DNA from: a virus
Direction: 5' to 3' (one strand)
Virus record (IMG/VR): IMGVR_UViG_3300020711_000011
Coordinates: 1-58,446 of that record
DNA length: 58,446 nt
In this document: positions 24,419 to 56,427 of the stretch, piece by piece
How the letters are laid out: each line of letters begins with the position of its first letter
Numbering within the stretch: the first letter of the stretch is position 1
The notes under the pieces: model-generated
Database searches by the model: none
Told to the model about the DNA's origin: nothing
What the model saw: only the letters and a program-made list of their open reading frames with translations
Program-made: the position numbers and the translations under genes

Positions 24419-24700
24419 TTATTTAACTTTTTTGTAGTTTTTATCAACCGTATAGTTCTTAAAGATCTTTAAGTACGATACGCCGTTTATATATTTAACC
24501 AAAATATTTTGAAGCAACACGATGAAATCGCTAACAAATGTGTTCTTATAGATTGATGGTGAAATGCTATTAAAAAGCAAATCCTTGGAGAAATTTCTTC
24601 CAAGGTTTAATCTATTATCTTTAATTTCAGTCTGTATGTCATAGATACTTTTTCGATCTGACTTGAATAGACCGTGATATAAGTTTTGCTTTGTTGCCAT
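24419..24700 (-). CDS. Small basic protein between wedge and structural genes
   Basis: A 93-residue Lys-rich protein with no recognised motif. It has an N-terminal KQNLYHGLFKSDRKSIYDI segment and a hydrophobic helix (VSDFIVLLQNILVKYI, about residues 56-71) followed by a basic tail. The start codon overlaps the stop of the gp6-like gene by one base, and the 924-residue protein follows after 2 bases, so it is translationally coupled within a baseplate operon. It may be a small baseplate connector or a chaperone. Confidence 0.5.
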   Translation of the reverse strand: MATKQNLYHGLFKSDRKSIYDIQTEIKDNRLNLGRNFSKDLLFNSISPSIYKNTFVSDFIVLLQNILVKYINGVSYLKIFKNYTVDKNYKKVK

Positions 24701-26535
24701 TATAGAGCTTTTCTATTTTGAGTCTGCAATGCAGAGAATATAGTGCTAGGGATCGGTGGATTATCAAAATAAACAGTCATTGCCGCCATTTCTCCAGTTC
24801 TTGCATCATCTATTACTGCAGCACCATTTCTATCCAACCAACCTCCTCTGAATAAAGCAACCTCTTCCGGTTGTAAGATAATATCTCCAAAGCTATCCAT
24901 TCCGATTATTGATTCTGGTAATGGATCGTTTTCTGCAATATTTACCGTAGTTGTCTGTGTTGTTTTCTTAAAGAAAACATATGATTGTTGTCCACTTCCG
25001 TCCGTTGTAAGGATTGGAGTAGATGGTGTTGTAATTGTTGTTGTTACGGTGTAGTAGCCATTTCTTCTAGCATCTTCTTCATCTTGAGATATAAATCTAA
25101 TATTTACCGAATCAATACCTTCAATTGCTTCAATTATTGCAATCAAATCTGATTTTGGTAAAGAGTCTCTTCTTGTAATAGTTAATAGATACTGAGATAC
25201 TGCACCTCTAATCACATTAAATAATTGTGATGTTGAATATCCTTCAAAGTATTTAACTTTGATGTCCATTCTATAATATTTAACGATTGGATCTACGATC
25301 TTGATTTCAGAATTAATCATCTGTTGACCTGAGTTTTCAATAACTCCTAAGATCGCATTGTTCATATCTTGAGAAAAGAAAAATTCGTTTTGATCAATAC
25401 TAAAATAATCTTGATTGCTTGTAAGTCTCTTATTCACGTCTGGCAACATAAATAAATAAATTATATTATCATCATCGATCGAACCGTCTGCTGTTGTAGT
25501 ATATGCATCTATATAAGAGAACATGCCATATTTGGCTAAGAAATATTCAAAATTATCTGGTGTTGCTAACACAAATGACTTAGAAGCCAAAGGAGCAATC
25601 AACTTAGTTAGGTTAATGTCTTCTGGATCGGCTCCCATTCTTGGAGCAACTGTACATGTTGAATCTAATAATAAATTAAGATCATAACTTGTTCCTGTTG
25701 AATCAAATCCCTGATCGATAAATTTAAAAGTTAAATCTTTAGAATCAACCAAGTTACCGATTGATCCTGCTGTAATAACGTATTCTATTATTATAGTAGT
25801 ACCAAGGTCTGGAATCATTCCAAAAGATCCATTACCAAAATAAATATCAATACCACCTGAGATTCCAGTCTTTGCTAAGAAACCAGTATCGGTTGGAAGC
25901 ATGTCATACAATGAATCAAATTTGGTCCATTTCTGTCCATTTACTGAAACTGTAATATTGTCATGATCCGCATTTCCATTGATCAAAATATTAAATGATT
26001 GCAATGCTAATCCAGTACCAGTTACGGTTTGACTTTCCAATGTACCTTGAATTATTGGAATATAAACATAATTTGCATTTGTTTTATCGATTCTAAACTG
26101 ATCTGCGCTGGTTTTTAATAAGTAATATAGACCATTTGAATTTGATTGTATCTTTGAATTTGCTGGAATATTAAGAGCATCACCTGCGATATCATTAATA
26201 GATCCTGCATTTAATCTAACTGCAATCTCTCCCACTGAACTTGCTCCTCTATATGGATCATGACCTGCTAATCTAGCAAGACCATAAATAGATTCTGGTT
26301 GCTGCGCAGTATAAATATTCTGCTCAACCGTAGAATTTTCAATATAATAAAATATCAATTCTCCGATCTCATTGATAACATCTATGATTTGAGAATAAGG
26401 AGACGCCGCAGTAAACATTTCACCCAAACGTCCATATAATCTGGCGATGTAGGTCTTTGTGTCAGCGACCATCTGTCCTGCCAAAATCCTAGAGGTTTGC
26501 AAAAAGCTTAAATTTGGTGGGTTTGGGTTTGCCAT
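24700..26535 (-). CDS. Baseplate wedge protein, T4 gp6-like / baseplate J family
   Basis: A 611-residue protein similar in size to T4 gp6 (660). It has the layout of the gp6/gpJ baseplate family: an N-terminal helical region (AGQMVADTKTYIARLYGRLGE, then YSQIIDVINEIGELIFYYIE), a beta domain with IPANSKIQSNSNGLYYLL, and a C-terminal region including YRMDIKVKYFEGYS and LPKSDLIAIIEAIEGIDSVNI, typical of J-family proteins. gp6 dimers join neighbouring wedges in the contractile baseplate ring. The gp25-like gene lies 13 bases upstream, the usual pairing in contractile systems, which strengthens the call. Confidence 0.8.
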   Translation of the reverse strand: MANPNPPNLSFLQTSRILAGQMVADTKTYIARLYGRLGEMFTAASPYSQIIDVINEIGELIFYYIENSTVEQNIYTAQQPESIYGLARLAGHDPYRGASSVGEIAVRLNAGSINDIAGDALNIPANSKIQSNSNGLYYLLKTSADQFRIDKTNANYVYIPIIQGTLESQTVTGTGLALQSFNILINGNADHDNITVSVNGQKWTKFDSLYDMLPTDTGFLAKTGISGGIDIYFGNGSFGMIPDLGTTIIIEYVITAGSIGNLVDSKDLTFKFIDQGFDSTGTSYDLNLLLDSTCTVAPRMGADPEDINLTKLIAPLASKSFVLATPDNFEYFLAKYGMFSYIDAYTTTADGSIDDDNIIYLFMLPDVNKRLTSNQDYFSIDQNEFFFSQDMNNAILGVIENSGQQMINSEIKIVDPIVKYYRMDIKVKYFEGYSTSQLFNVIRGAVSQYLLTITRRDSLPKSDLIAIIEAIEGIDSVNIRFISQDEEDARRNGYYTVTTTITTPSTPILTTDGSGQQSYVFFKKTTQTTTVNIAENDPLPESIIGMDSFGDIILQPEEVALFRGGWLDRNGAAVIDDARTGEMAAMTVYFDNPPIPSTIFSALQTQNRKAL

Positions 26536-26917: not shown

Positions 26918-27757
26918 TTAAGAATGCATCATCCAGTCGGTGCCTTCTTCTTTTATAATTTCTTCGATAACTGCATCTAATTCTTCTTTACCTAGATCTT
27001 GAATTACGCTTGCATTTACTTTTACATTTCCTGGTAATGTGTAATCAAAGATCTGCATTTTGTTACCTAATGAAATTTTGATTTTAGCTGCGCAATATCT
27101 AAAGAAAGCTTCATCATCAAATAGGGCACATTCAGGAATAGTTTCATAAACATCAAGCATTATGTCCTTCATAGGATCTAATCCAGTAAATCTGATCTCG
27201 TGTGTTAATTGGTTATAATTAAATGATACAGCGTTTTCAATAATCTGTCTTGTCATATCAAAGAAGCTCTCATTGATAACGTAATATTGCAAGTTTTCAG
27301 CTCCTGCAACGGTACCGGTACCGCCATAAAGACCTCCATATAACATTCTTTCTAATGCAAAGTCACCTGTTGTAAACATCAATGAAGTTCCAGCTCCATA
27401 GATCGAACCTGTTTCAAAGCATCCAAATACTGAGAAAACCTCTCCACCGCCTGTAACTGGATCCATTGCATTAAGAGTAAGACTTTTAGTTCTTAAATAA
27501 TGTTCAGATTGAAAAACCGCCAAAGGCAAATAATAAACATTCTCTCTAACACTATATTCATAATGTTTATAGAACCATTTCTTTGCTCTCTGTACGATAT
27601 TATAAACCTCTTTTTTAGGTAGGTTCATTGGAATCATACAAGATCCTGTGATGTCATCTGCCAATCTTTGTAAAAAGTTATCAAGGCACATCGAGTCCCA
27701 ACTAGGTGGGGTAGTTTCATTGGTGGTTCCACCATCAATATTAAAAATATCGCTCAT
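26918..27757 (-). CDS. Virion structural protein, possible neck or baseplate component
   Basis: A 279-residue protein not assigned with certainty. A helical N-terminal segment (MCLDNFLQRLADDITG, then KEVYNIVQRAKKWFYKHYEY) is followed by a beta-rich Gly-containing middle (about residues 100-160) and an alpha/beta end with a DEAFFRYCAAKIKISLG helix and an acidic tail (KEELDAVIEEIIKEEG). The arrangement is compatible with neck or head-completion proteins of T4-like phages, but no diagnostic motif is visible. Position just upstream of gp25 and gp6 supports a virion role. Confidence 0.5.
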   Translation of the reverse strand: MSDIFNIDGGTTNETTPPSWDSMCLDNFLQRLADDITGSCMIPMNLPKKEVYNIVQRAKKWFYKHYEYSVRENVYYLPLAVFQSEHYLRTKSLTLNAMDPVTGGGEVFSVFGCFETGSIYGAGTSLMFTTGDFALERMLYGGLYGGTGTVAGAENLQYYVINESFFDMTRQIIENAVSFNYNQLTHEIRFTGLDPMKDIMLDVYETIPECALFDDEAFFRYCAAKIKISLGNKMQIFDYTLPGNVKVNASVIQDLGKEELDAVIEEIIKEEGTDWMMHS

Positions 27758-27758
27758 A

Positions 27759-29069
27759 TTATTCTATTATGTTTACAATTTTTTGTGAAGTTACTATTTC
27801 TACATCATCGAACTTAGCGCTCTTTGGTTCATATTTACCTTCTCTAAAGATTCCACCTTGCATTGTTCCTGCAAATACTCCATCAATACCATATACATAA
27901 CAGTTTTTTAATATTACTGTTTTTGCAACGTATGATGAACCGACCTTTGAATCATTTACTTGGGTATTTTGATAGAAATTACAGTTTCTAATATCTGAAG
28001 ATTTTACATCGCACTTAAAGAAGTCGCATCTTGTAACTTCTCCCTGTACCGTGCATCCAACAAATTCATATCCATTGATTTCAAAACAATAAGGTAATGA
28101 ACCATCTTTAACTTGAATATTTCCATTGTCAGAATCATAATTAATATGACCGCTTTCAAGTTGACCGTACGTAAATAGATTTGAAACTCTTTCTTTAATT
28201 TGAGGCCAGTACAAATCTATAGTATGCGGATTATCATTTAAATCAACCGTAAATTTACATTTAGGAAAGTTCTTAGCGATATTCTTCCAATCAACTCTGA
28301 TTTCAATTATCTTTTTATTGTCAGACAATATTTTCTTAAGTTCCAATTTATTTAATTGACTAAAAGAATTATCAGTCGCAGTTTTCCATAATTGAAGTAG
28401 AAAAACATCCAATAGATTTAAAATCTTTGCAGACTTTTTGTTCCAATCTTTGCCTCCTAAATATCTAAATTCCAAATAGTTCTTTTGTAACTTATCAAAG
28501 TTTACTCCATAGTATTTTGTCTTTGGAAAGATAAAATTGTTTTGGCTAATTTGTTCTCCATTATAATTATAAGTTTCTAATCTTGGAATTACAAATTTGA
28601 TAGATTTTGCGTAGGTTGAATTCTTTCTGTTTGGAAATTCTTTCCAAACCAAATCTTCATTAAAATCTAGAATGAATTTTAGTGGACTCATCTTTGAGAT
28701 AAGATTCTTATTGCCACTTAGCTTTGGATCAAAGCTTAAATTTAGGTGAATTGAAGATCTATCGGTAGTGTAACCATTTTCAGTAATCCAGTTGCACATT
28801 TTGATAATCATCAATCTTGCTGCCGAGTAAGGCATTGCACCCGTTACCAGTTCGATAAGTCCTGCCCCGCCGCTCATATCTGGTTCCATTTTGAATTCGT
28901 CTGCCGTAGGAGCAAATTCGCTATGGGCCTTCTTTTCGATACGGATCTTTTTCTGTAGGAGTTTTCCTATGCTTTTTGCCGTATCATCGATACTAAGGTT
29001 GGAGTAAAGTTCGAACTCTACTCCAACCAAAGCTTTCGATAATATATCTGAATCCTTAAGGTTGATCAT
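27759..29069 (-). CDS. Amidoligase-like enzyme with C-terminal pentapeptide-like repeat
   Basis: A 436-residue protein with features of the Amidoligase_2 family (GS/GCS-like COOH-NH2 ligases). Motifs: VGVEFELY with Glu18 and Glu20, an EPDMSGGAGLIELVTG segment (from residue 62, Glu73), SSIHLNLSFD with His108 and Asn110, and NYLEFRYLGG with Glu200 and Arg202. Such enzymes join a carboxylate to an amine using ATP, often making isopeptide or peptide-like bonds. Residues about 330-412 form a short-period repeat with Phe/Cys turns (FVGCTV, CDFFKCDV, IRNCNFYQN, VILKNCYVYG) like a beta-helix of pentapeptide type. It sits inside the virion block, two bases upstream of a structural gene. The substrate is unknown; a virion or cell-wall peptide target is possible. 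Confidence 0.7.
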   Translation of the reverse strand: MINLKDSDILSKALVGVEFELYSNLSIDDTAKSIGKLLQKKIRIEKKAHSEFAPTADEFKMEPDMSGGAGLIELVTGAMPYSAARLMIIKMCNWITENGYTTDRSSIHLNLSFDPKLSGNKNLISKMSPLKFILDFNEDLVWKEFPNRKNSTYAKSIKFVIPRLETYNYNGEQISQNNFIFPKTKYYGVNFDKLQKNYLEFRYLGGKDWNKKSAKILNLLDVFLLQLWKTATDNSFSQLNKLELKKILSDNKKIIEIRVDWKNIAKNFPKCKFTVDLNDNPHTIDLYWPQIKERVSNLFTYGQLESGHINYDSDNGNIQVKDGSLPYCFEINGYEFVGCTVQGEVTRCDFFKCDVKSSDIRNCNFYQNTQVNDSKVGSSYVAKTVILKNCYVYGIDGVFAGTMQGGIFREGKYEPKSAKFDDVEIVTSQKIVNIIE

Positions 29070-29115: not shown

Positions 29116-30333
29116 CTACAACTTCAAGAATAACTTTCTAGTTGATTCATCGATTCGGGTTAATGTAACCGTAATTGGATCTCCTTTCTTAATTTCATCG
29201 ATTGAGATACCATCAAGTTCGCTGATATGTAATAATCCTACAATTCCTTCTTCAACCGTTACAAAGATACCGTAATCTTTTATAGATTTAACAGTTCCTT
29301 GGATCTGACATGGAATTTTGTATTTATCTGAGATGTTCTCCCATGGATTTGCAGTTTCTACAGTATCGATCTGCGTTAATGTGATTTTCTTTTCGCTGAT
29401 AACCTCTTTAACTTTGAATGAAATTTCATCGCCAGGTTGGATCGATCCTTTTGAAAGTCTAGTTGCAAATTCTTCGTTTAGATCATTGATGTGAATCATA
29501 CCGGTTAAACAACCATTAAATTCAACAAAGACTCCAAATTTTGCAGAACCAGTGACTGTACCAGAATATTCTGTCTCAGCAGGATTAATCTTTAATTGTT
29601 CAATCTCATGAGGTACCAATGCTTGTAGGTATTTTCTATGAGATACCACAACGGTTCCTTTTTCTACTGAGAAACTTACTGGAACAACATATAAATCTGT
29701 TCCGATGATAGATTCAAAGTTTGATAATTTGTTTGCACCAGCTAGAGATCCAGGCATGAAACAATCAATTCCTTGTATGTTAACGATGTAACCACCATTT
29801 GGAATCATTTGAGTAACCGTACCAGTGTAAGCTGTTTTACCATCTTCGATTGCTTTATGTAATTCAGCAAATACTGCTTGTCTGGTTCCTTCTGTAACAG
29901 ATCCAACTATGAATCCTCTTTCATTTTTATCAGATGTGATTTTAACCATGAATTCCTTCCCTGGTTGAATCAATTTTTTAAATTGTGCTGATTCTTTTTC
30001 TAAATCGATGTATATTGATTCTCTATAACCAATATCGATCATTGCCCATTTTTCAGTTACGCTGTGAATAGTTCCAGTGTGGTGTTCTCCAGTGTTAACT
30101 TGCGGAATGATTTGAATATGATCATTTCCCATCAATAGATCATAAAAACGCTGAGCATCTTTTCCTCTAGAATAGACCTTTACGTTAATAGGTGTTTTGA
30201 TTCTGTCATTGCCCTTTTTTAGGATAGATGGGCACTCCGATTCATAACCTTCCCAATCAAATTCTCCTGTTGGTAATGTCCATGGGTCGTTCGGTGAATG
30301 TACTGGTGTTTTTTGTTGTTCTGCGTTTAGCAT
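29116..30333 (-). CDS. Four-repeat S1-domain RNA-binding protein (ribosomal protein S1-like)
   Basis: A 405-residue protein with four S1 (OB-fold) repeats at about residues 80-150, 162-236, 250-322 and 338-405. The last two are canonical: TGSAKFGVFVEFNGCLTG and GTVKSIKDYGIFVTVEEG, each followed by the typical hydrophobic-Gly-Leu/Met-His-h-x-[DE]L strand. Bacterial ribosomal protein S1 has four to six repeats and delivers mRNA to the 30S. A phage copy could recruit phage mRNAs or replace host S1. The N-terminal about 70 residues are unique (NDPWTLPTGEFDWEGYE). It is separated from neighbours by short gaps, with an ATAAATAT box about 35 bases upstream. Assignment to S1-repeat proteins is firm; ribosomal function is inferred. 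Confidence 0.9.
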   Translation of the reverse strand: MLNAEQQKTPVHSPNDPWTLPTGEFDWEGYESECPSILKKGNDRIKTPINVKVYSRGKDAQRFYDLLMGNDHIQIIPQVNTGEHHTGTIHSVTEKWAMIDIGYRESIYIDLEKESAQFKKLIQPGKEFMVKITSDKNERGFIVGSVTEGTRQAVFAELHKAIEDGKTAYTGTVTQMIPNGGYIVNIQGIDCFMPGSLAGANKLSNFESIIGTDLYVVPVSFSVEKGTVVVSHRKYLQALVPHEIEQLKINPAETEYSGTVTGSAKFGVFVEFNGCLTGMIHINDLNEEFATRLSKGSIQPGDEISFKVKEVISEKKITLTQIDTVETANPWENISDKYKIPCQIQGTVKSIKDYGIFVTVEEGIVGLLHISELDGISIDEIKKGDPITVTLTRIDESTRKLFLKL

Positions 30334-30371: not shown

Positions 30372-31604
30372 TCATATTACAAAAGGCACAAATCCGATCA
30401 TTGGAGCTGTTCCAACTCCATAATAAATTTGTCCATTGTATATGAATTTAAGGTGTAATAAGTGATCTTGTAGTGCATAAGCCACTGCGGTTGCTACTAA
30501 ATTTGCAGCGACGTGTTTTTCTTCTGGCTTTTCATATTTTTTACCAGTGTTCCATGCTCTTCTTAAAAAATCAGCAAGCCTGGTTTGACTGCCATACGTT
30601 AAAGGAACATAGGTTCCTGGAGCCGGTATTGTTGCTGGAAATATGCTTGGAGTCTGAGCAAATGGTTGAGTTGCCGTAGATTTCCAATAATCAAGTACGC
30701 CTTTGGCCAATACCTCAAATGGATCTGTATCTGCACCCGCTTTCTCATCTTTATTTGCATTTGCACTATCAATTTCAGATTGTGTCCATTTGGTAAGCAC
30801 ATCCTTCCAATCTTTTTCTTCAGATTTAACGATATTAAGCTTATTTTGTATTCTGGTAGATTCATCTGCCTGTTCCACTTTTGGTATCAAAGATTCTACC
30901 TTTAATAGATCTGAATTAATATCTCCATCTATTTTTGCGTCATACGTATATTTCGCAATCAATTCAGGTGTTATGAATGGAGATGTTTTTTGATCTTGTT
31001 TATTTGCAAAGCTCTGAAACACCTGTTTGTTATATGTTCCAGTTGGTTTTTGCTTTAATTTAATTAGATTTAATACTGTGCTTTTAACCTTTACGGCCCA
31101 TAATGAATTGCTTCCAGTATTTAATCTATTGATCCAATCTAAATATTTTTTAGAATCTTCGCCATCCATTGCAAATAAGATTCTATCCGCCAAAACCTTA
31201 ATCATATCAGCTTCAGTAATCTTGGCATCCACCTTACCAAAATCAAAACTTAAAAAGTTTTTTGATTTTGTAGCGACTAACCATTTTATTAATTGCGCAT
31301 TTGCATCGTATGATTGAGTGTCTTGTAGAGGTTCCGTAAGATCTGCATACATTGGATCGACCATCTTCTGTTCATACGTTGGCGATGTTGAATCGCCCAG
31401 CATTTTAAAACCTCGTTTGAAAGCATCATTGAGAATTGTTTGTTGGCCAGGAATATGTTTATTTGAAAATGGTGTCTGTGAATTGGCTACCGCTGTAAAA
31501 TACTGCTGTGCCATGAAAGTACCCATCTCATCCAAATTTTGGATGGTCTGACTTTCTAGCTTTGATGCTACAGTATTGATGAAGGTTGGCCAATTTACGG
31601 GCAT
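30372..31604 (-). CDS. Hypothetical virion protein
   Basis: A 410-residue protein not recognised. The N-terminal 130 residues are helical (PVNWPTFINTVASKLESQ, then MGTFMAQQYFTAVANS), the middle is charged and helical with heptad-like segments (about 200-290), and the C-terminus is hydrophobic (LLHLKFIYNGQIYYGVGTAP). It lies between the S1-repeat gene and the hub gene in the tail block; a tail or baseplate accessory role is the best inference. A TATAATAA box ends 3 bases upstream of the ATG. Confidence 0.55.
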   Translation of the reverse strand: MPVNWPTFINTVASKLESQTIQNLDEMGTFMAQQYFTAVANSQTPFSNKHIPGQQTILNDAFKRGFKMLGDSTSPTYEQKMVDPMYADLTEPLQDTQSYDANAQLIKWLVATKSKNFLSFDFGKVDAKITEADMIKVLADRILFAMDGEDSKKYLDWINRLNTGSNSLWAVKVKSTVLNLIKLKQKPTGTYNKQVFQSFANKQDQKTSPFITPELIAKYTYDAKIDGDINSDLLKVESLIPKVEQADESTRIQNKLNIVKSEEKDWKDVLTKWTQSEIDSANANKDEKAGADTDPFEVLAKGVLDYWKSTATQPFAQTPSIFPATIPAPGTYVPLTYGSQTRLADFLRRAWNTGKKYEKPEEKHVAANLVATAVAYALQDHLLHLKFIYNGQIYYGVGTAPMIGFVPFVI

Positions 31605-31635: not shown

Positions 31636-33147
31636 TTAAACTTGAGGTGCTTTAAAGATTAATAAATTCCAGGTCGATGCTGGTTTAGATTTATATACAA
31701 AATATGTATCGAAATTGTTTCTAGTATCAGTGGACCATTTATGTCCATTTGATCTGGTGTGTAGACCACCTGTAAAGATTTGAGTGTGTCCATATTGTCT
31801 ACAACTATCAGCAGTAGAACCATCGGTCGCCCAATAGCATACAACATCGCCAATATCAAAATCTTGAGATAAAATTGATGCTAACTGTGATTTACTAATA
31901 TTAGAACCACCCGCAATCTTTTTATATCCTATAGATTCTAATGTTGCAAAATATCCTTTACCATTTGCATTTCCATTTGCTGGAAACGTTGCTCCTGGAA
32001 TCATCTTTTTGCCATGCAATCCTGCCACATAATTTCTAGCGATATTCGATGTGTATCTAGAACATAATGATTTCGCTTCACCTGATTTTAATGTGTAATC
32101 AACAGCATTGATGATTGAAGTTGACTGTATTCCTTTAAATTTACGATTGTAGAATGTTGTTGAAGTATCATTGCCCTTATTTTTACCAACATCGGTATCA
32201 TTGACTTCATCACCTGATGTAATACCCGATATCGGTTGAGGTGCTCCATTTGCATCCAAGATGATTTCATCTTCGGTGCTGTATGTTGCTCCTGATCCGC
32301 CCGTTGAAGTAGTTGTTCCAGAAGTACCACTTGTTCCTGAAGTACTTGCAGCTGAAGTACCACTTGTACCTGTTGTACCACTTGTACCTGACGTAGAAGC
32401 TGATGTACCTGAGGTGCCACTGGATCCACTAGAGCTTGTTGGTGTTGATGAACTACCACCACCTGCTTTGTATTGCTTGATGGTGTCCAGTTTACCTTTG
32501 GTCTCAGTAACTTGTGCCTTTTCAGGAGGCAAGGGTGGACCTGAAGGACCTGTACCCGTTGGATGCGTGTGACTTAAGAATGATGCCATAAAGCTATCCA
32601 ATAACTTTCTTAGCGTCTCTCCTTTTACCGCAGGTTCTGCCTCGTCTTTTGAATTAGAAGCAATAAAGATTTGATCTGCATTTAAGAACATCTTTCCATC
32701 TGGACTAAAACGAATCATTGGTTGCGAATTTTTATCCGCACCTGTCGTCATTACTAGACCGTCCTCTTTGCTTAAATAGAATCTGAAATTTCTTACGATA
32801 TCATAGATCAATGAAACAACATTTTGAGGTTCTGCTGAACCATTTAAAATATCATTCTTTAATTCAGGACTTTGATTGATTTGATATGAATATGTTGGAG
32901 TGTAAATATTACCATTGTCAAATGTTATTGAAACAATATCTCCTTTATTTGGAATAATGTGTTGTCCTGGAGCCATTGAATTAGATGGAGACGCCCAAGG
33001 TATCGCGTCGTTTGTTAAATTATCAAACTTGCCATACACCTTTACCCTACAACGACCATTATTTTTTGGATCGTTATTATCAACAACTTCACCCAACCAA
33101 TGGGTGTCTCTAATGTTGTCAGAACCTAATTCATTTTCTGTTGCCAT
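31636..33147 (-). CDS. gp5-like baseplate hub/spike protein with C-terminal Cys/His hydrolase
   Basis: A 503-residue hub protein. Residues about 16-90 form an OB-fold as in T4 gp5 (DTHWLGEVVDNNDPKNNGRC, PNKGDIVSITFDNGN). Residues 193-208 carry SHTHPTGTGPSGPP, typical of the spike start. Residues about 229-287 are a Ser/Thr/Gly low-complexity linker. The C-terminal 150 residues resemble CHAP or NlpC/P60 peptidoglycan hydrolases: Cys362 in SLCSRYTSNIARNYV, a Gly-Asp-Val strand (IGDVVCYW), and His454 in QYGHTQIFTGG. In T4, gp5 instead carries a lysozyme domain in the middle. Thus the host wall is probably opened by a different enzyme. A TATAAATA box ends 6 bases upstream of the ATG. Confidence 0.8.
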   Translation of the reverse strand: MATENELGSDNIRDTHWLGEVVDNNDPKNNGRCRVKVYGKFDNLTNDAIPWASPSNSMAPGQHIIPNKGDIVSITFDNGNIYTPTYSYQINQSPELKNDILNGSAEPQNVVSLIYDIVRNFRFYLSKEDGLVMTTGADKNSQPMIRFSPDGKMFLNADQIFIASNSKDEAEPAVKGETLRKLLDSFMASFLSHTHPTGTGPSGPPLPPEKAQVTETKGKLDTIKQYKAGGGSSSTPTSSSGSSGTSGTSASTSGTSGTTGTSGTSAASTSGTSGTSGTTTSTGGSGATYSTEDEIILDANGAPQPISGITSGDEVNDTDVGKNKGNDTSTTFYNRKFKGIQSTSIINAVDYTLKSGEAKSLCSRYTSNIARNYVAGLHGKKMIPGATFPANGNANGKGYFATLESIGYKKIAGGSNISKSQLASILSQDFDIGDVVCYWATDGSTADSCRQYGHTQIFTGGLHTRSNGHKWSTDTRNNFDTYFVYKSKPASTWNLLIFKAPQV

Positions 33148-49615: not shown

Positions 49616-49804
49616 TTAGTCTATGTTTTGTTGTTTTTGTTGTTTGTAGATTGCTTTAAGGTTCTGAGTTCTATTGATAACACTTGGTTTTTCGAACTCT
49701 TTTCTTTTTTGTAGCTCTTGGGTTTGCTTAGTTTTAAGAACCTTTCTTTTGTATTCCTTTAGAGCTTTTTCAATATTACCGTCTTTGATATTAACTATAA
49801 TCAT
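49616..49804 (-). CDS. rpsU: Ribosomal protein bS21, phage-encoded
   Basis: A 62-residue bS21 homologue: MIIVNIKDGNIEKALKEYKR then KEFEKPSVINRTQNLKAIY match Bacteroidota bS21 (IEKALKxxKRK, EFxKPSVxxRxxxxKAxY). The conserved C-terminal aromatic residue is kept (Tyr53). In Bacteroidota, bS21 with bS18 and bS6 sequesters the anti-Shine-Dalgarno tail of 16S rRNA, so a phage copy could alter which mRNAs the 30S selects. The start overlaps the stop of the upstream gene (ATGA). Unlike host rpsU of many Flavobacteriales, no extended SD precedes it. The family is secure; incorporation into ribosomes is inferred. Confidence 0.93.
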   Translation of the reverse strand: MIIVNIKDGNIEKALKEYKRKVLKTKQTQELQKRKEFEKPSVINRTQNLKAIYKQQKQQNID

Positions 49805-53114: not shown

Positions 53115-53354
53115 TTAAAAACTTGTTCCTGTTTGATCATCCCAAGTATGGGATTGTCTTATTTTGCAAAATTGCTCGTAATTAATAGTTACTGCAACAT
53201 ATCCTCCTGTGACTGAGTAGGGGGCTTCACTCTCGGAGAACCAATACGGAGGGGTCTCTTCGATTCTATCATTTAGAAAATCGAAAAGTTCATCTATTTG
53301 CATGTGATGTACGTGGACTGTTATAACCATGCAATTGTTATTTGGATATCCCAT
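53115..53354 (-). CDS. Small hypothetical protein
   Basis: A 79-residue protein starting MGYPNNNCMVITVHVHHM, with a strand-helix-strand pattern (ITVHVHHMQIDELFDFLNDR, YVAVTINYEQFCKIRQ). No known family. It overlaps the ATP-grasp gene stop by one base and may be its small partner; this is only positional. Confidence 0.5.
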   Translation of the reverse strand: MGYPNNNCMVITVHVHHMQIDELFDFLNDRIEETPPYWFSESEAPYSVTGGYVAVTINYEQFCKIRQSHTWDDQTGTSF

Positions 53355-54307
53355 TATTTTTGTACTTTCCAGTTTGGATTTTGTTTCATGTTCTGTTTAA
53401 TATCTGCATCTCTAAATTCTTTCAATAACTTTTCAGTATCTCCAGAAATTTGAGTTTGGTAATAATCTTGGTAGATTCTTTGGTACACCATCGACATTAC
53501 TCCAAATAAGGCTCCAGGTTCTGAATTCATTTCGAACACGTAGATCTTATCCTTCTTATCCACTGCGATATCGATCGCATAAAAGTCTAAGTCATAATGT
53601 TGCTCGATAAAATAATCGCATGCTTTTAAGAATGCATCAGAAGGTGAACCCTTCATTAAAGTATATCCAAAGTTTGTTTCATCCTCAGGATCCTTTTCAC
53701 CGATATCTTCGGTCTCTTCATCCATCGGTATTCTAGTACACCATTGTAATATCTCTCCTCTCCATAGAAAGAATCTATATTCCTGTTTGATATCGATCTT
53801 TTCACCAAAAGAAGTAAATTGACGTAGATCTGCTTTATCCATGTCTTCTTGCGTATCAAACACTTGAATTCCTAATCCGCTATGATTGTTATCCGGTTTT
53901 GCAACTATCGGAAACTTTAATTCACTAATGTCCTTTGGATCAAATACAGTTGGAATGATGTATGGACTTTTTGCGTGTAATTTATAAAATTCTGATTTGG
54001 ATGCTACTCTCTTTTTTGCATCAATCCAATTATAAACTTGTTTCTCTCTAATAGCTCCAGATTTTAAGAACTTTTGTAGGGTCTCAGTATCGTAATTTAA
54101 AACTGGTAAATCTTTCTTGATCGATGAATCCTTGTCATCTCTAACGGCAATTACCCAATAATCTCGGGTTGAATAGTCTGGGCCAGTGATAAATGAATTC
54201 TTAAGTCTTTTTCTTCTGGTAATCATTACCTTCTGAAATTCTTCACGAACATATGCTTCCTGCATAAACTGTTCGAACATCATTATTTTAGTTAGAGATT
54301 TCTTCAT
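53354..54307 (-). CDS. ATP-grasp ligase with FEQFMQE N-terminus
   Basis: A 317-residue ATP-grasp protein. Seen: FPIVAKPDNNHSGLGIQVFD (Lys137 and the Gly-rich loop at 143-147), IDIKQEYRFFLWRGEILQW (Glu176), DFYAIDIAVDKKDKIYVF (Asp246) and FEMNSEPGAL with Glu259 and Asn261 binding Mg-ATP. The enzyme probably joins a carboxylate to an amine, as in RimK or glutathione synthetase type ligases; its substrate is unknown. The N-terminus MKKSLTKIMMFEQFMQEAY contains the F-E-x-F-h-x-E motif shared with three other proteins and T4-like head targeting. A TATATACA box sits 2 bases upstream of the ATG. Confidence 0.85.
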   Translation of the reverse strand: MKKSLTKIMMFEQFMQEAYVREEFQKVMITRRKRLKNSFITGPDYSTRDYWVIAVRDDKDSSIKKDLPVLNYDTETLQKFLKSGAIREKQVYNWIDAKKRVASKSEFYKLHAKSPYIIPTVFDPKDISELKFPIVAKPDNNHSGLGIQVFDTQEDMDKADLRQFTSFGEKIDIKQEYRFFLWRGEILQWCTRIPMDEETEDIGEKDPEDETNFGYTLMKGSPSDAFLKACDYFIEQHYDLDFYAIDIAVDKKDKIYVFEMNSEPGALFGVMSMVYQRIYQDYYQTQISGDTEKLLKEFRDADIKQNMKQNPNWKVQK

Positions 54308-54340: not shown

Positions 54341-55219
54341 ATGAGAAAAGCTATCTGGGTTTTAGAGAATGTCGATGGAAATCGTGAGTTTTATACCAGC
54401 GTTAAAATTTTAATGCTGCTTTCAAGTGTCATCAATTGGAAAAGATACAATGAAACCAATAACGCGCTGCATACGGATTCAATGACCTTGGCAGTCCTAA
54501 GCAACCTAGGAGTCTTGGATCTATGGGATGAAATTCATACCAACATAATAGACCAAGAGACTGTGATTGATAAGAGATCTTATTGGGCATCTTCTAAATT
54601 AAGAGTATTAATTAATCAAACTGAACCGGTTACATTGGTTGATTATGACTTTATAACATACACTAATTTGACAGAACTTGGAAAGGATTCCGCTTTTGTT
54701 TATTCATACGATGAAAATGGAACTCAATCATATTTTGGAGGAACTAATCCAGATGTTAAAAAATTAAATAACATTCCAGATTTTTTAAAAAGAAGTAAAA
54801 GCCTAGATGCTGCTAATGTTTCATATCTTTCTTTTAATGATATCGAATTTCAGTTAGAATATGCAAAGTATTCTTTGGCATGTATCGAAGAATTTTCTGA
54901 AATGGGAGTAAAGGGTACAAGCTATCTAACTTTTGCCGAACAAAAAATATTAAAGCAACTTGCGTTACATCTTGGTGTTAAACACGTTCCATTGATTAAA
55001 AATGAATTTAAATCTTCAAAGCAAGGATTTATAAATGTGATGAATCCTGATGGAATATGGCATGTTGATGATGCAAATTTTAAATTTAAACACATCGGTA
55101 CCGATAAAGCATTTATAAAAAATGGAGATCCAACCTTTATTTTTTTATGTAATAGTATAAGATCCAAAATCGATCAAGCTCATTTGGATAGAATCTTAGA
55201 ATTAGATCAACCGTTATAA
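54341..55219 (+). CDS. Putative glycosyltransferase-like protein (only plus-strand gene)
   Basis: A 292-residue protein, read opposite to every other gene. It begins MRKAIWVLENVDGNREFYTS and contains YNETNNALHTDSMTLAVLSN and VTLVDYDFITYTNLT with Asp101-Tyr-Asp103, a DxD-like motif as in GT-A enzymes. The pattern AxxSNxxVxxxWD with a later DxD resembles polysaccharide or GT32-type sugar transferases of Bacteroidota. No catalytic confirmation is possible. It converges with the GT2 gene (overlap 55207-55219) and diverges from the ATP-grasp gene, so it looks like an inserted module, possibly modifying a fibre or host glycan. Confidence 0.5.
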   Translation: MRKAIWVLENVDGNREFYTSVKILMLLSSVINWKRYNETNNALHTDSMTLAVLSNLGVLDLWDEIHTNIIDQETVIDKRSYWASSKLRVLINQTEPVTLVDYDFITYTNLTELGKDSAFVYSYDENGTQSYFGGTNPDVKKLNNIPDFLKRSKSLDAANVSYLSFNDIEFQLEYAKYSLACIEEFSEMGVKGTSYLTFAEQKILKQLALHLGVKHVPLIKNEFKSSKQGFINVMNPDGIWHVDDANFKFKHIGTDKAFIKNGDPTFIFLCNSIRSKIDQAHLDRILELDQPL

Positions 55220-56427
55220 ACTAAATTCACAGCGCCTTGTTCTTCTCCATATATTGATGGAGTATCTATTGGATGGTGAGGATTTTGTTCGTATGCCCAA
55301 TCTTTAACTCCAAGCTCTTTAAATCTTTTTACAATTTTCTCGTTATAATAGAGCATGATTGTTTTGACTCTTCGTTGAATATCAGCTCTAGTACGATCTT
55401 GCGTATTCATTTCAGTTCCATCATTATATAAAAATTGAATATAAAGGGTTTTCGGTATATGAACCATTTTTGTATTAAGAAAAGTTCTTATGATTAACTC
55501 ATAATCATCTGCTATAGTTAATCCACGAGCATGTCCACCAATCTCAAAATAGGTTGAACGCCTCCATGCTCTAATATGATTTGGAACTCCAACAATATGT
55601 CTAATTGTTTTAGGATTTATAGGAGGAGTAATCGAAGATTGTACCTCATGACCCATAACATAGTCAGTTCTATATGTTCCATATCCAAGCGCAAAACCTT
55701 CTCCATAAATATTAGATTTCCAATCAATTGAAACTTCAGGTGCATCTGAATAAAAGAATCCGGCATCTGGAAACATCTGAGACGCTTTATATAAGTGTTC
55801 TGCACAATCAGGAGTCAATAGGTCATCATGATCCAGCTCTGCCAATATTTCACCTTTACACATGCATGCTGCTCGCCACTTAACCTCTCCTATCAAACCG
55901 CCACTTTTTTCTTTAAAATCATAAACTCTAACCCTAGTATCTTTATCTGCTAAATCTTCTGCGATCTTTAATGTTATACCATCATCATTTGAATCGTTCA
56001 CCATCACCCATTCCCAATTATTGTGGGTTTGGTTTTTAAGAGATTCGTAAGTTTTGTATAGTTTTTCTTTGGTATTGTATATTGGAGTAAAGAACGAAAT
56101 CAATTCCTTTCTATCGGTAATATTTAGAATATCGTGCATTGCAACTCGATATGCCATATCTCCCATGAGTGATGATTGCTCTTTAACGTTTATCCATTTC
56201 CTTCTAATTTCTAAAGGAGCTACAAATAGCTTTGGCAAACTTGATTCATCTTGAACACACGATAATATCGCATCGGGTTTAAATCGATTAATGACTTGAA
56301 ATATTTCATCATCATTATTAATATACTCAACCTCAAGTTCAGAAGATTCATAGTACACTGGATTATTTGTTGTTAGGACTGGAGTCCCTTCACCGATAAA
56401 TAGAATCCTTGGATTTCTTACTTTCAT
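55207..56427 (-). CDS. Family 2 glycosyltransferase
   Basis: A 406-residue GT2 enzyme. The first about 105 residues form a separate alpha/beta domain (RNPRILFIGEGTPVLTT). Then the GT-A fold: ELISFFTPIYNTKEKLYKTY, WVMVNDSNDDG, LAELDHDDLLTPDCAEHLY (DxD within ELDHDD, residues 197-202), and the acceptor region IVGVPNHIRAWRRSTYFEIGG with ADDYEL as the catalytic acid region (about 300-325). It likely transfers a nucleotide-sugar residue to a protein or glycan. Neighbours are two 2OG oxygenases and a second GT-like gene, suggesting protein glycosylation or surface glycan change. Confidence 0.88.
   Translation of the reverse strand: MKVRNPRILFIGEGTPVLTTNNPVYYESSELEVEYINNDDEIFQVINRFKPDAILSCVQDESSLPKLFVAPLEIRRKWINVKEQSSLMGDMAYRVAMHDILNITDRKELISFFTPIYNTKEKLYKTYESLKNQTHNNWEWVMVNDSNDDGITLKIAEDLADKDTRVRVYDFKEKSGGLIGEVKWRAACMCKGEILAELDHDDLLTPDCAEHLYKASQMFPDAGFFYSDAPEVSIDWKSNIYGEGFALGYGTYRTDYVMGHEVQSSITPPINPKTIRHIVGVPNHIRAWRRSTYFEIGGHARGLTIADDYELIIRTFLNTKMVHIPKTLYIQFLYNDGTEMNTQDRTRADIQRRVKTIMLYYNEKIVKRFKELGVKDWAYEQNPHHPIDTPSIYGEEQGAVNLVYNG

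What the first reader, a model, noticed from the sequence alone, without database searches (positions are those of the whole stretch)
29116..30333. Second translation factor: a four-repeat S1-domain protein
Four S1 OB repeats make this a ribosomal S1-like protein in a virion gene block. With phage bS21 in the same genome, two proteins acting at the 30S platform or mRNA entry are phage-encoded. Inference: together they may steer the host ribosome to SD-less or leaderless phage mRNAs.
Basis: partly seen in the sequence, partly recalled or inferred. Interest (0 to 1): 0.7.

Follow-up and report, generated by a model that had tools for sequence, protein, structure and literature searches.

The report
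Phage version of ribosomal protein S1
A large virus of Bacteroidota-type bacteria appears to carry its own cut-down copy of the ribosomal protein that feeds messenger RNA into ribosomes, a core gene of its whole virus group that probably helps it take over host protein synthesis.

Summary
ORF 29116-30333 (-), 405 aa, has four S1/OB domains and matches bacterial ribosomal protein bS1 over OB1-OB4. It is not a PNPase/RNase R-type protein. A true bS21 gene lies at 49616-49804 (-). The gene is old: 22 phage representatives form one clade (100/100), apart from the sampled cellular bS1. 575 IMG/VR stretches encode relatives, and the gene sits in a fixed tail/baseplate cassette in 74 of 74 testable loci. 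Relatives occur in 462-735 kb huge phages and Lak phages.

New anatomy: bS1 OB5-OB6 are missing. An N-terminal F-x-W-x-x-[YHF] element (74 of 74 distinct proteins) is shared with Bacteroidota bS1 (6 of 6) but none of 8 other bS1 rows: a plausible 30S anchor. Best reading: a phage bS1 substitute that docks on host 30S and delivers late phage mRNAs.

'Steering to SD-less mRNAs' is not distinctive: Bacteroidota hosts already ignore Shine-Dalgarno sites; 1 of 47 window genes has one. Al-Shayeb 2020 already proposed phage rpS1/rpS21 hijacking. New member of a known kind.

The parts
29116..30333 (-). bS1-like gene, 405 aa, four OB/S1 domains
30124..30273 (-). N-terminal module, residues 21-70, conserved in the phage family (F25, W27, C34, P35, N42, A60 invariant in 74 of 74)
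30244..30261 (-). F-x-W-x-x-Y element, residues 25-30, shared with Bacteroidota bS1 N-termini; candidate 30S anchor (inference)
29890..30096 (-). OB/S1 domain 1 (residues 80-148), bS1 R1-like, least conserved repeat
29629..29841 (-). OB/S1 domain 2 (residues 165-235), bS1 R2-like with phage signature FMPGSLAGxNKL; most conserved repeat
29368..29580 (-). OB/S1 domain 3 (residues 252-322), canonical RNA-binding face (F/Y266, F269, H281)
29119..29322 (-). OB/S1 domain 4 (residues 338-405), canonical RNA-binding face (Y354, F357, H369)
49616..49804 (-). bS21 gene, Bacteroidota type, no SD motif upstream
27759..29069 (-). next gene downstream: glutamine-synthetase/amidoligase-type fold plus C-terminal beta domain; conserved neighbour of the S1 gene in this clade
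30372..31604 (-). next gene upstream, 410 aa, function unknown
31636..33147 (-). baseplate-V (gp5-type OB) protein
26918..27757 (-). head-tail adaptor (phrog_211), used as the independent probe for synteny
24700..26535 (-). baseplate wedge subunit (phrog_219)

Best explanation
The protein is a phage-specific, shortened bS1. It is made with the late virion genes, docks on the host 30S through its N-terminal module and OB1, and uses OB2-OB4 to capture mRNA at the exit-side cleft. It thereby replaces or competes with host bS1 and favours initiation on phage late transcripts in a Bacteroidota host whose ribosomes depend on bS1 rather than on Shine-Dalgarno pairing. Shown: four-domain bS1 anatomy, conserved RNA-contact residues, conserved N-terminal module, fixed position among virion genes in this clade, lack of SD motifs, bS21 in the same record. 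Inferred: host phylum, late expression, ribosome docking, competition with host bS1, preference for phage mRNA.
For: Sequence and structure match bS1 collinearly: rpsA models E 8.5e-48; best PDB structure matches are ribosome-bound bS1, 9gut_B E 1.7e-27, model 63-405 on bS1 2-346 at Z 13.8. What is kept is the part of bS1 that matters for initiation: in E. coli OB1-3 suffice for mRNA docking, OB4 stimulates and OB5-6 are dispensable (PMC3858243, passages). N-terminal F-x-W motif: 74 of 74 distinct phage proteins (shuffle mean 0.35), 6 of 6 Bacteroidota bS1, 0 of 8 others; profile-profile comparison places it on the Bacteroidota bS1 N-terminus but not on the proteobacterial one. In E. coli the N-terminal helix (F5, F9) is the anchor to uS2 (PMC4288201, passages). 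OB2 positions that I aligned with E. coli F120/F130 are Y and F in 74 of 74; canonical F/Y-G-x-F and H residues are kept in OB3/OB4 (residue roles from PMC10123108 and PMC6705787 passages). Gene present in the cassette in 74 of 74 testable loci. F. johnsoniae bS1 raised initiation on one SD-less mRNA about 2-fold (PMC9976891, passage).
Against: No ribosome association is shown. All bit scores lie far below the NCBIfam equivalog cut-offs (163 against 524) and the phage clade sits on a long stem, so function may have shifted. Repeats 3 and 4 are not specifically bS1 R3 and R4. The F-x-W element is missing from the five huge-phage sequences other than Lak aligned, though their N-termini also hold aromatic residues. 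OB1, a ribosome-contact domain in E. coli, is the least conserved repeat. bS21 is absent from 10 of 24 larger contigs, all of them possibly incomplete.
Confidence: 0.58

Rival explanations
1. Off-ribosome RNA chaperone or mRNA shield: the protein coats late phage transcripts, unfolding or protecting them from host RNases, without being a ribosomal subunit.
For: OB3 and OB4 carry complete RNA-binding faces; OB1, the ribosome-contact domain in E. coli, is the least conserved repeat (mean major-residue fraction 0.57 against 0.82 for OB2); Al-Shayeb 2020 left open 'on or off the ribosome'. In Lak-B5 the gene lies among RNA/DNA enzymes (tRNA-His guanylyltransferase, helicase, RNA ligase, kinase-type protein).
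Against: The conserved N-terminal module and bS1-specific R1/R2 order would not be needed for a plain RNA binder.
Confidence: 0.2
2. Virion component: a tail or baseplate protein, or a protein packaged and injected with the DNA, that happens to use S1-type OB folds.
For: Fixed position between baseplate and head-tail adaptor genes in this clade; next to tail-type genes also in four huge-phage records. Chen 2022 raised packaging for bS21 (section 18 read).
Against: In both Lak records examined the gene is not beside homologues of these virion genes, and the Lak-B5 neighbours that could be named are nucleic-acid and metabolic enzymes. The best fold matches are bS1. RNA-contact residues are conserved.
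Confidence: 0.12
3. Host shut-off decoy: the protein occupies uS2 and displaces host bS1, lacks OB5-6, and so lowers translation of host mRNAs more than it helps phage mRNAs.
For: Keeps a candidate anchor but loses two C-terminal RNA domains relative to the six-domain host bS1.
Against: RNA-contact residues of OB2-OB4 are kept; E. coli bS1 without OB5-6 is nearly active.
Confidence: 0.1

Closest known systems
Ribosomal protein bS1 (rpsA), E. coli and Bacteroidota forms
   Same: Collinear OB1-OB4, R1 and R2 assigned one to one, R2 F-x-P-G-S loop, RNA-binding residues in OB3/OB4, N-terminal aromatic motif as in Bacteroidota bS1
   Different: Four domains instead of six; 24% identity in the alignment; below all rpsA equivalog cut-offs; extra conserved CP/NPHIK segment in the N-terminal module; separate clade
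rpS1-like proteins of huge phages (Al-Shayeb et al. 2020, PMC7162821; passages read)
   Same: Same family: the 462, 634, 636, 642 and 735 kb records (LR7565xx, LR745206) carry orthologues and group with the window protein 100/100; record sizes match the paper's largest genomes; same lack of SD; same proposal of translation takeover
   Different: The passages read do not describe the fixed tail cassette, the OB1-4 limit or the N-terminal motif; the window's record is a 58 kb fragment
bS21-encoding Bacteroidetes phages (Chen et al. 2022, PMC9723584; abstract, outline, sections 7 and 18 and passages read)
   Same: Bacteroidota-type bS21 near virion genes, with an aromatic residue at the F. johnsoniae Tyr54 position (Y53 here by the alignment)
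   Different: There bS21 is on the strand opposite to the structural genes; here it is on the same strand. The terms 'ribosomal protein S1' and 'S1-like' do not occur in the main text held
bS1 of Microcystis phage PhiMa05/MaAM05 (PMC13157829, passages)
   Same: Phage-encoded bS1 of about 360 aa
   Different: Falls with cellular bS1 in the tree, not with this phage clade

Membership tests
Ribosomal protein bS1 (rpsA) | Consecutive OB/S1 domains with the bS1-specific R1 and R2 | tested here: met
   R1 16.7 bits (next 10.3), R2 33.2 bits (next 7.2); structure collinear with bS1 2-346
Ribosomal protein bS1 (rpsA) | Score above the curated equivalog cut-off | tested here: not met
   Best rpsA model 163 bits, cut-off 524; other rpsA models likewise below. 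So it is called bS1-like, not bS1 proper
Ribosomal protein bS1 (rpsA) | Six domains, as in Bacteroidota | tested here: not met
   Four OB domains in the model; the C-terminus lines up with host R4 or R5. Four-domain bS1 exists in other phyla
Ribosomal protein bS1 (rpsA) | N-terminal aromatic segment that anchors the protein to uS2 | tested here: inconclusive
   F-x-W-x-x-[YHF] present in 74 of 74 phage proteins and 6 of 6 Bacteroidota bS1; binding to uS2 not tested
Ribosomal protein bS1 (rpsA) | Placed inside the cellular bS1 tree | tested here: inconclusive
   22 phage rows are one side of a branch, 100/100; attachment to Bacteroidota, Proteobacteria, Bacillota-type or Chlamydiota rows not rejected, p-AU 0.353, 0.528, 0.427, 0.445
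Ribosomal protein bS1 (rpsA) | Present on ribosomes, supports initiation | not testable with these tools
   needs biochemistry
PNPase / RNase R / RNase II type S1 proteins | Catalytic domain next to the S1 domain | tested here: not met
   Pfam finds S1 (and one sub-threshold OB model) only; PNPase and RNase R models match only S1 stretches with 64 and 36 bits
Huge-phage rpS1-like proteins | Same orthologous family as the S1-domain proteins of the published huge phages | tested here: met
   tblastn E 5e-66 to LR756500 with 100% cover, 6e-43 to 6e-29 to the 634-735 kb records; one clade
Ribosomal protein bS21 | Match over the Pfam gathering score | tested here: met
   48.6 bits, cut-off 27; best PDB matches are bS21 chains of 9i5v and of the 7jil set
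Phage tail structural protein | Gene stays with virion genes across the family | tested here: not met
   Holds in the window clade but the Lak-B5 gene lies among nucleic-acid enzymes

The most novel reading that the evidence does not exclude
These phages rebuild the mRNA-exit side of the host 30S with two of their own proteins: a Bacteroidota-type bS21 that keeps the anti-SD buried, and a bS1 stand-in that wears the host phylum's own N-terminal anchor. In most of them the phage bS21 gene also lacks the SD that ties host rpsU to autoregulation, so phage-specialised ribosomes can be made while host bS21 stays under control.
Probability: 0.25. Interest if true: 0.82.

Novelty: new member of a known kind. 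Interest (0 to 1): 0.47.

Why it matters
Phage-encoded bS1 has been proposed as a translation-takeover factor but, in the papers seen here, never tested. This family is large, conserved in place, and has a compact set of invariant residues (F25, W27, C34, P35, A60) that make a clear mutational test possible. Bacteroidota ribosomes are a good setting: they work without Shine-Dalgarno pairing, and a purified F. johnsoniae bS1 and an initiation assay exist (PMC9976891). A clear answer would show whether viruses exchange the mRNA-feeding protein of the ribosome. It also warns that the published link between phage rpS1 and missing SD sites may only reflect Bacteroidota hosts.

Tried and rejected
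Donor phylum by tree: rejected as unresolvable; four alternative attachments all fit.

Virion-protein reading from synteny alone: set aside because the Lak copy is elsewhere.

Idea that non-Lak huge phages carry a proteobacterial-type anchor (F-x-x-L-F) because of other hosts: dropped, since Al-Shayeb 2020 predicts Bacteroidetes hosts for its genomes over 634 kb.

Search for further platform proteins: bS18 over cut-off in 0 of 31 records, one sub-threshold match with stops inside; IF3 C-terminal domain in 3 of 31, all three among the 7 named huge phages.

One-to-one match of repeats 3 and 4 with bS1 R3 and R4: not supported; the Bacteroidota profile alignment places them on R4 and R5, the proteobacterial one on R3 and R4.

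Scan of genome contigs with the mixed alignment A1: 5 loci of 24 pattern hits, in bins named Erysipelotrichaceae, Clostridium, Clostridia or Deferrisomatales, not followed. Scan with a Bacteroidota bS1 in viral contigs: 1 locus.

Print status: searches of the open-access library showed, in their listings, no paper on this S1 family beyond Al-Shayeb 2020 and the PhiMa05 paper; subscription papers and preprints were not covered. PMC8545117 mentions predicted phage-encoded S1 proteins in one sentence.

Rows dropped: the SD count left out 7 of 55 listed ORFs as overlapping or doubtful, added two short genes, and dropped 3 TTG-start genes. The motif count used 74 distinct proteins of at least 350 aa out of 121 S1 ORFs found in 122 loci. 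Scans 77 and 79 keep the best 80 of 575 and of 462, so counts on them describe the nearer relatives; many IMG/VR contigs are near-copies and not independent.

Full report
What is there. ORF 29116-30333 on the minus strand encodes 405 aa. Pfam finds S1 domains (E 1.5e-27), and the NCBIfam models for ribosomal protein S1 match residues 50-403 at E 8.5e-48 (163 bits), against 64 bits for PNPase and 36 for RNase R. phmmer aligns residues 84-403 with E. coli bS1 23-344. An AlphaFold model from 35 family members has mean pLDDT 79 and pTM 0.49, as expected of beads on a string; it shows four OB barrels and a short N-terminal helix. The best solved match is ribosome-bound bS1 (9gut_B, E 1.7e-27); the second-look aligner lays model residues 63-405 on bS1 2-346 (Z 13.8, rmsd 11.6 over 331 residues, the high rmsd presumably because the domains are flexibly joined).

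Which repeats. Profiles of the six bS1 repeats, built from ten six-domain proteins, assign repeat 1 to R1 and repeat 2 to R2; repeats 3 and 4 score best with R5. Much the same holds over the family, while the cellular-type four-domain bS1 rows score best with R3 for their third repeat. The first two domains are therefore bS1-specific; the last two are ordinary RNA-binding S1 domains. Bacteroidota bS1 has six domains (PMC6705787, passage), so two are missing. In E. coli OB5-6 are dispensable, OB1-3 are essential and OB4 helps (PMC3858243, passages).

The N-terminal module. Residues 21-70 hold F25, W27, C34, P35, N42 and A60, invariant in 74 of 74 distinct phage proteins. F-x-W-x-x-[FYH] occurs in 74 of 74 (shuffle mean 0.35), in 6 of 6 Bacteroidota bS1 and in 0 of 8 other bS1 rows, one of them the Microcystis phage copy. 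The profile comparison with Bacteroidota bS1 aligns this segment by itself; the one with proteobacterial bS1 does not. In E. coli, F5 and F9 of the N-terminal helix stack on uS2 and either alanine change abolishes ribosome binding (PMC4288201, passages). That the phage motif does the same is inference. Against it: the five huge-phage copies other than Lak in the alignment lack the exact motif.

A family, not an isolated gene. A single-sequence scan found 42 loci. In 38 of these the amidoligase-like gene follows S1; in the other four no such gene is seen because the contig ends. The family alignment found 575 encoding stretches in IMG/VR (best 80 kept). To avoid choosing loci by the gene under test, I probed with the head-tail adaptor: of the best 80 of 462 loci, 74 carry the S1 gene upstream, 6 were too short to tell and none with room lacked it. 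Orthologues occur in the 462 kb record with the same gene order, in four 634-735 kb records beside other tail-type genes, and in Lak phages; in Lak-B5 the neighbours include tRNA-His guanylyltransferase, a DnaB-type helicase, an RNA ligase and endonucleases. The tree puts 22 phage representatives on one side of a branch (100/100) but cannot name a donor phylum. It is thus an old phage gene, not a recent host copy, and its link with virion genes is not universal.

The second ribosomal protein. bS21 lies at 49616-49804 (48.6 bits, cut-off 27). Its nearest solved relatives are bS21 chains of 9i5v and of the 7jil group; 7jil is F. johnsoniae by PMC9976891. Y53 falls on the tyrosine that stacks on the anti-SD in F. 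johnsoniae (residue role from PMC9723584, passage). bS21 is present in 14 of 24 larger contigs of this clade, in 0 of 3 further fragments of it, and in 4 of 7 named huge phages. The contigs may be incomplete. Only 1 of 9 phage bS21 genes has an SD motif, that of the 735 kb phage; host rpsU of many Flavobacteriales has a strong SD and is autoregulated in F. johnsoniae (PMC9976891, passages).

The SD argument. One of 47 ATG genes in the window has a GGAG/GAGG/AGGA word at -20 to -4, shuffle mean 1.7; 10 of 318 long ORFs in relatives and 0 of 41 S1 genes do. Al-Shayeb 2020 linked phage rpS1 with missing SD sites. The same paper predicts Bacteroidetes hosts for its genomes over 634 kb and for Lak, and Bacteroidia lack SD use, so the link may be a host effect. 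Host of the window phage: Bacteroidota by inference from the bS21 type, the bS1 N-terminus and the SD-less genes; no CRISPR or other direct test was made.

Mechanism. I favour a bS1 substitute on the 30S (0.58), over an off-ribosome RNA chaperone (0.20), a virion component (0.12) or a pure shut-off decoy (0.10). The kind was proposed in 2020, and a public database already labels a relative '30S ribosomal protein S1 [uncultured marine phage]'. What is added here is the size and unity of the family, the cassette, the OB1-4 limit, the host-type N-terminus and the SD caveat.

Noticed in passing
27759-29069 (-): Gene directly downstream of S1: predicted N-terminal glutamine-synthetase-like (amidoligase) domain plus a C-terminal beta domain (model pLDDT 88.5; Z about 10.7 to glutamine synthetases); an 80%-identical relative passes Pfam Amidoligase_2. 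It follows S1 in 38 of 42 loci, the other 4 contigs ending first. Target unknown.
   Followed up: partly
53354-54307 (-): ATP-grasp protein, just below the R2K Pfam cut-off; PHROG label 'ribosomal protein S6 glutaminyl transferase' (E 2.3e-9). bS6 is part of the pocket that buries the anti-SD in Bacteroidia, so a RimK-type activity would be of interest; evidence is weak.
   Followed up: no
49616-49804 (-); L073: Phage bS21 genes lack an SD motif in 8 of 9 cases, unlike host rpsU of many Flavobacteriales; the 735 kb phage copy has AGGAGG, as if under host-like autoregulation.
   Followed up: partly
L242, L243, L244: Three of seven named huge phages with this S1 also encode IF3 (LR756504, LR756500, LR756501); two of these three also have bS21.
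   Followed up: no
54341-55219 (+): The only plus-strand gene kept as real in the window: DUF6734, beside a family 2 glycosyltransferase (55207-56427).
   Followed up: no
L029 2008-3273: S1 gene split into two ORFs in one contig; frameshift or assembly error.
   Followed up: no
L056-L059: Relatives of the family also turn up in genome bins labelled Erysipelotrichaceae, Clostridium and Clostridia, probably phage contigs binned with gut bacteria.
   Followed up: no
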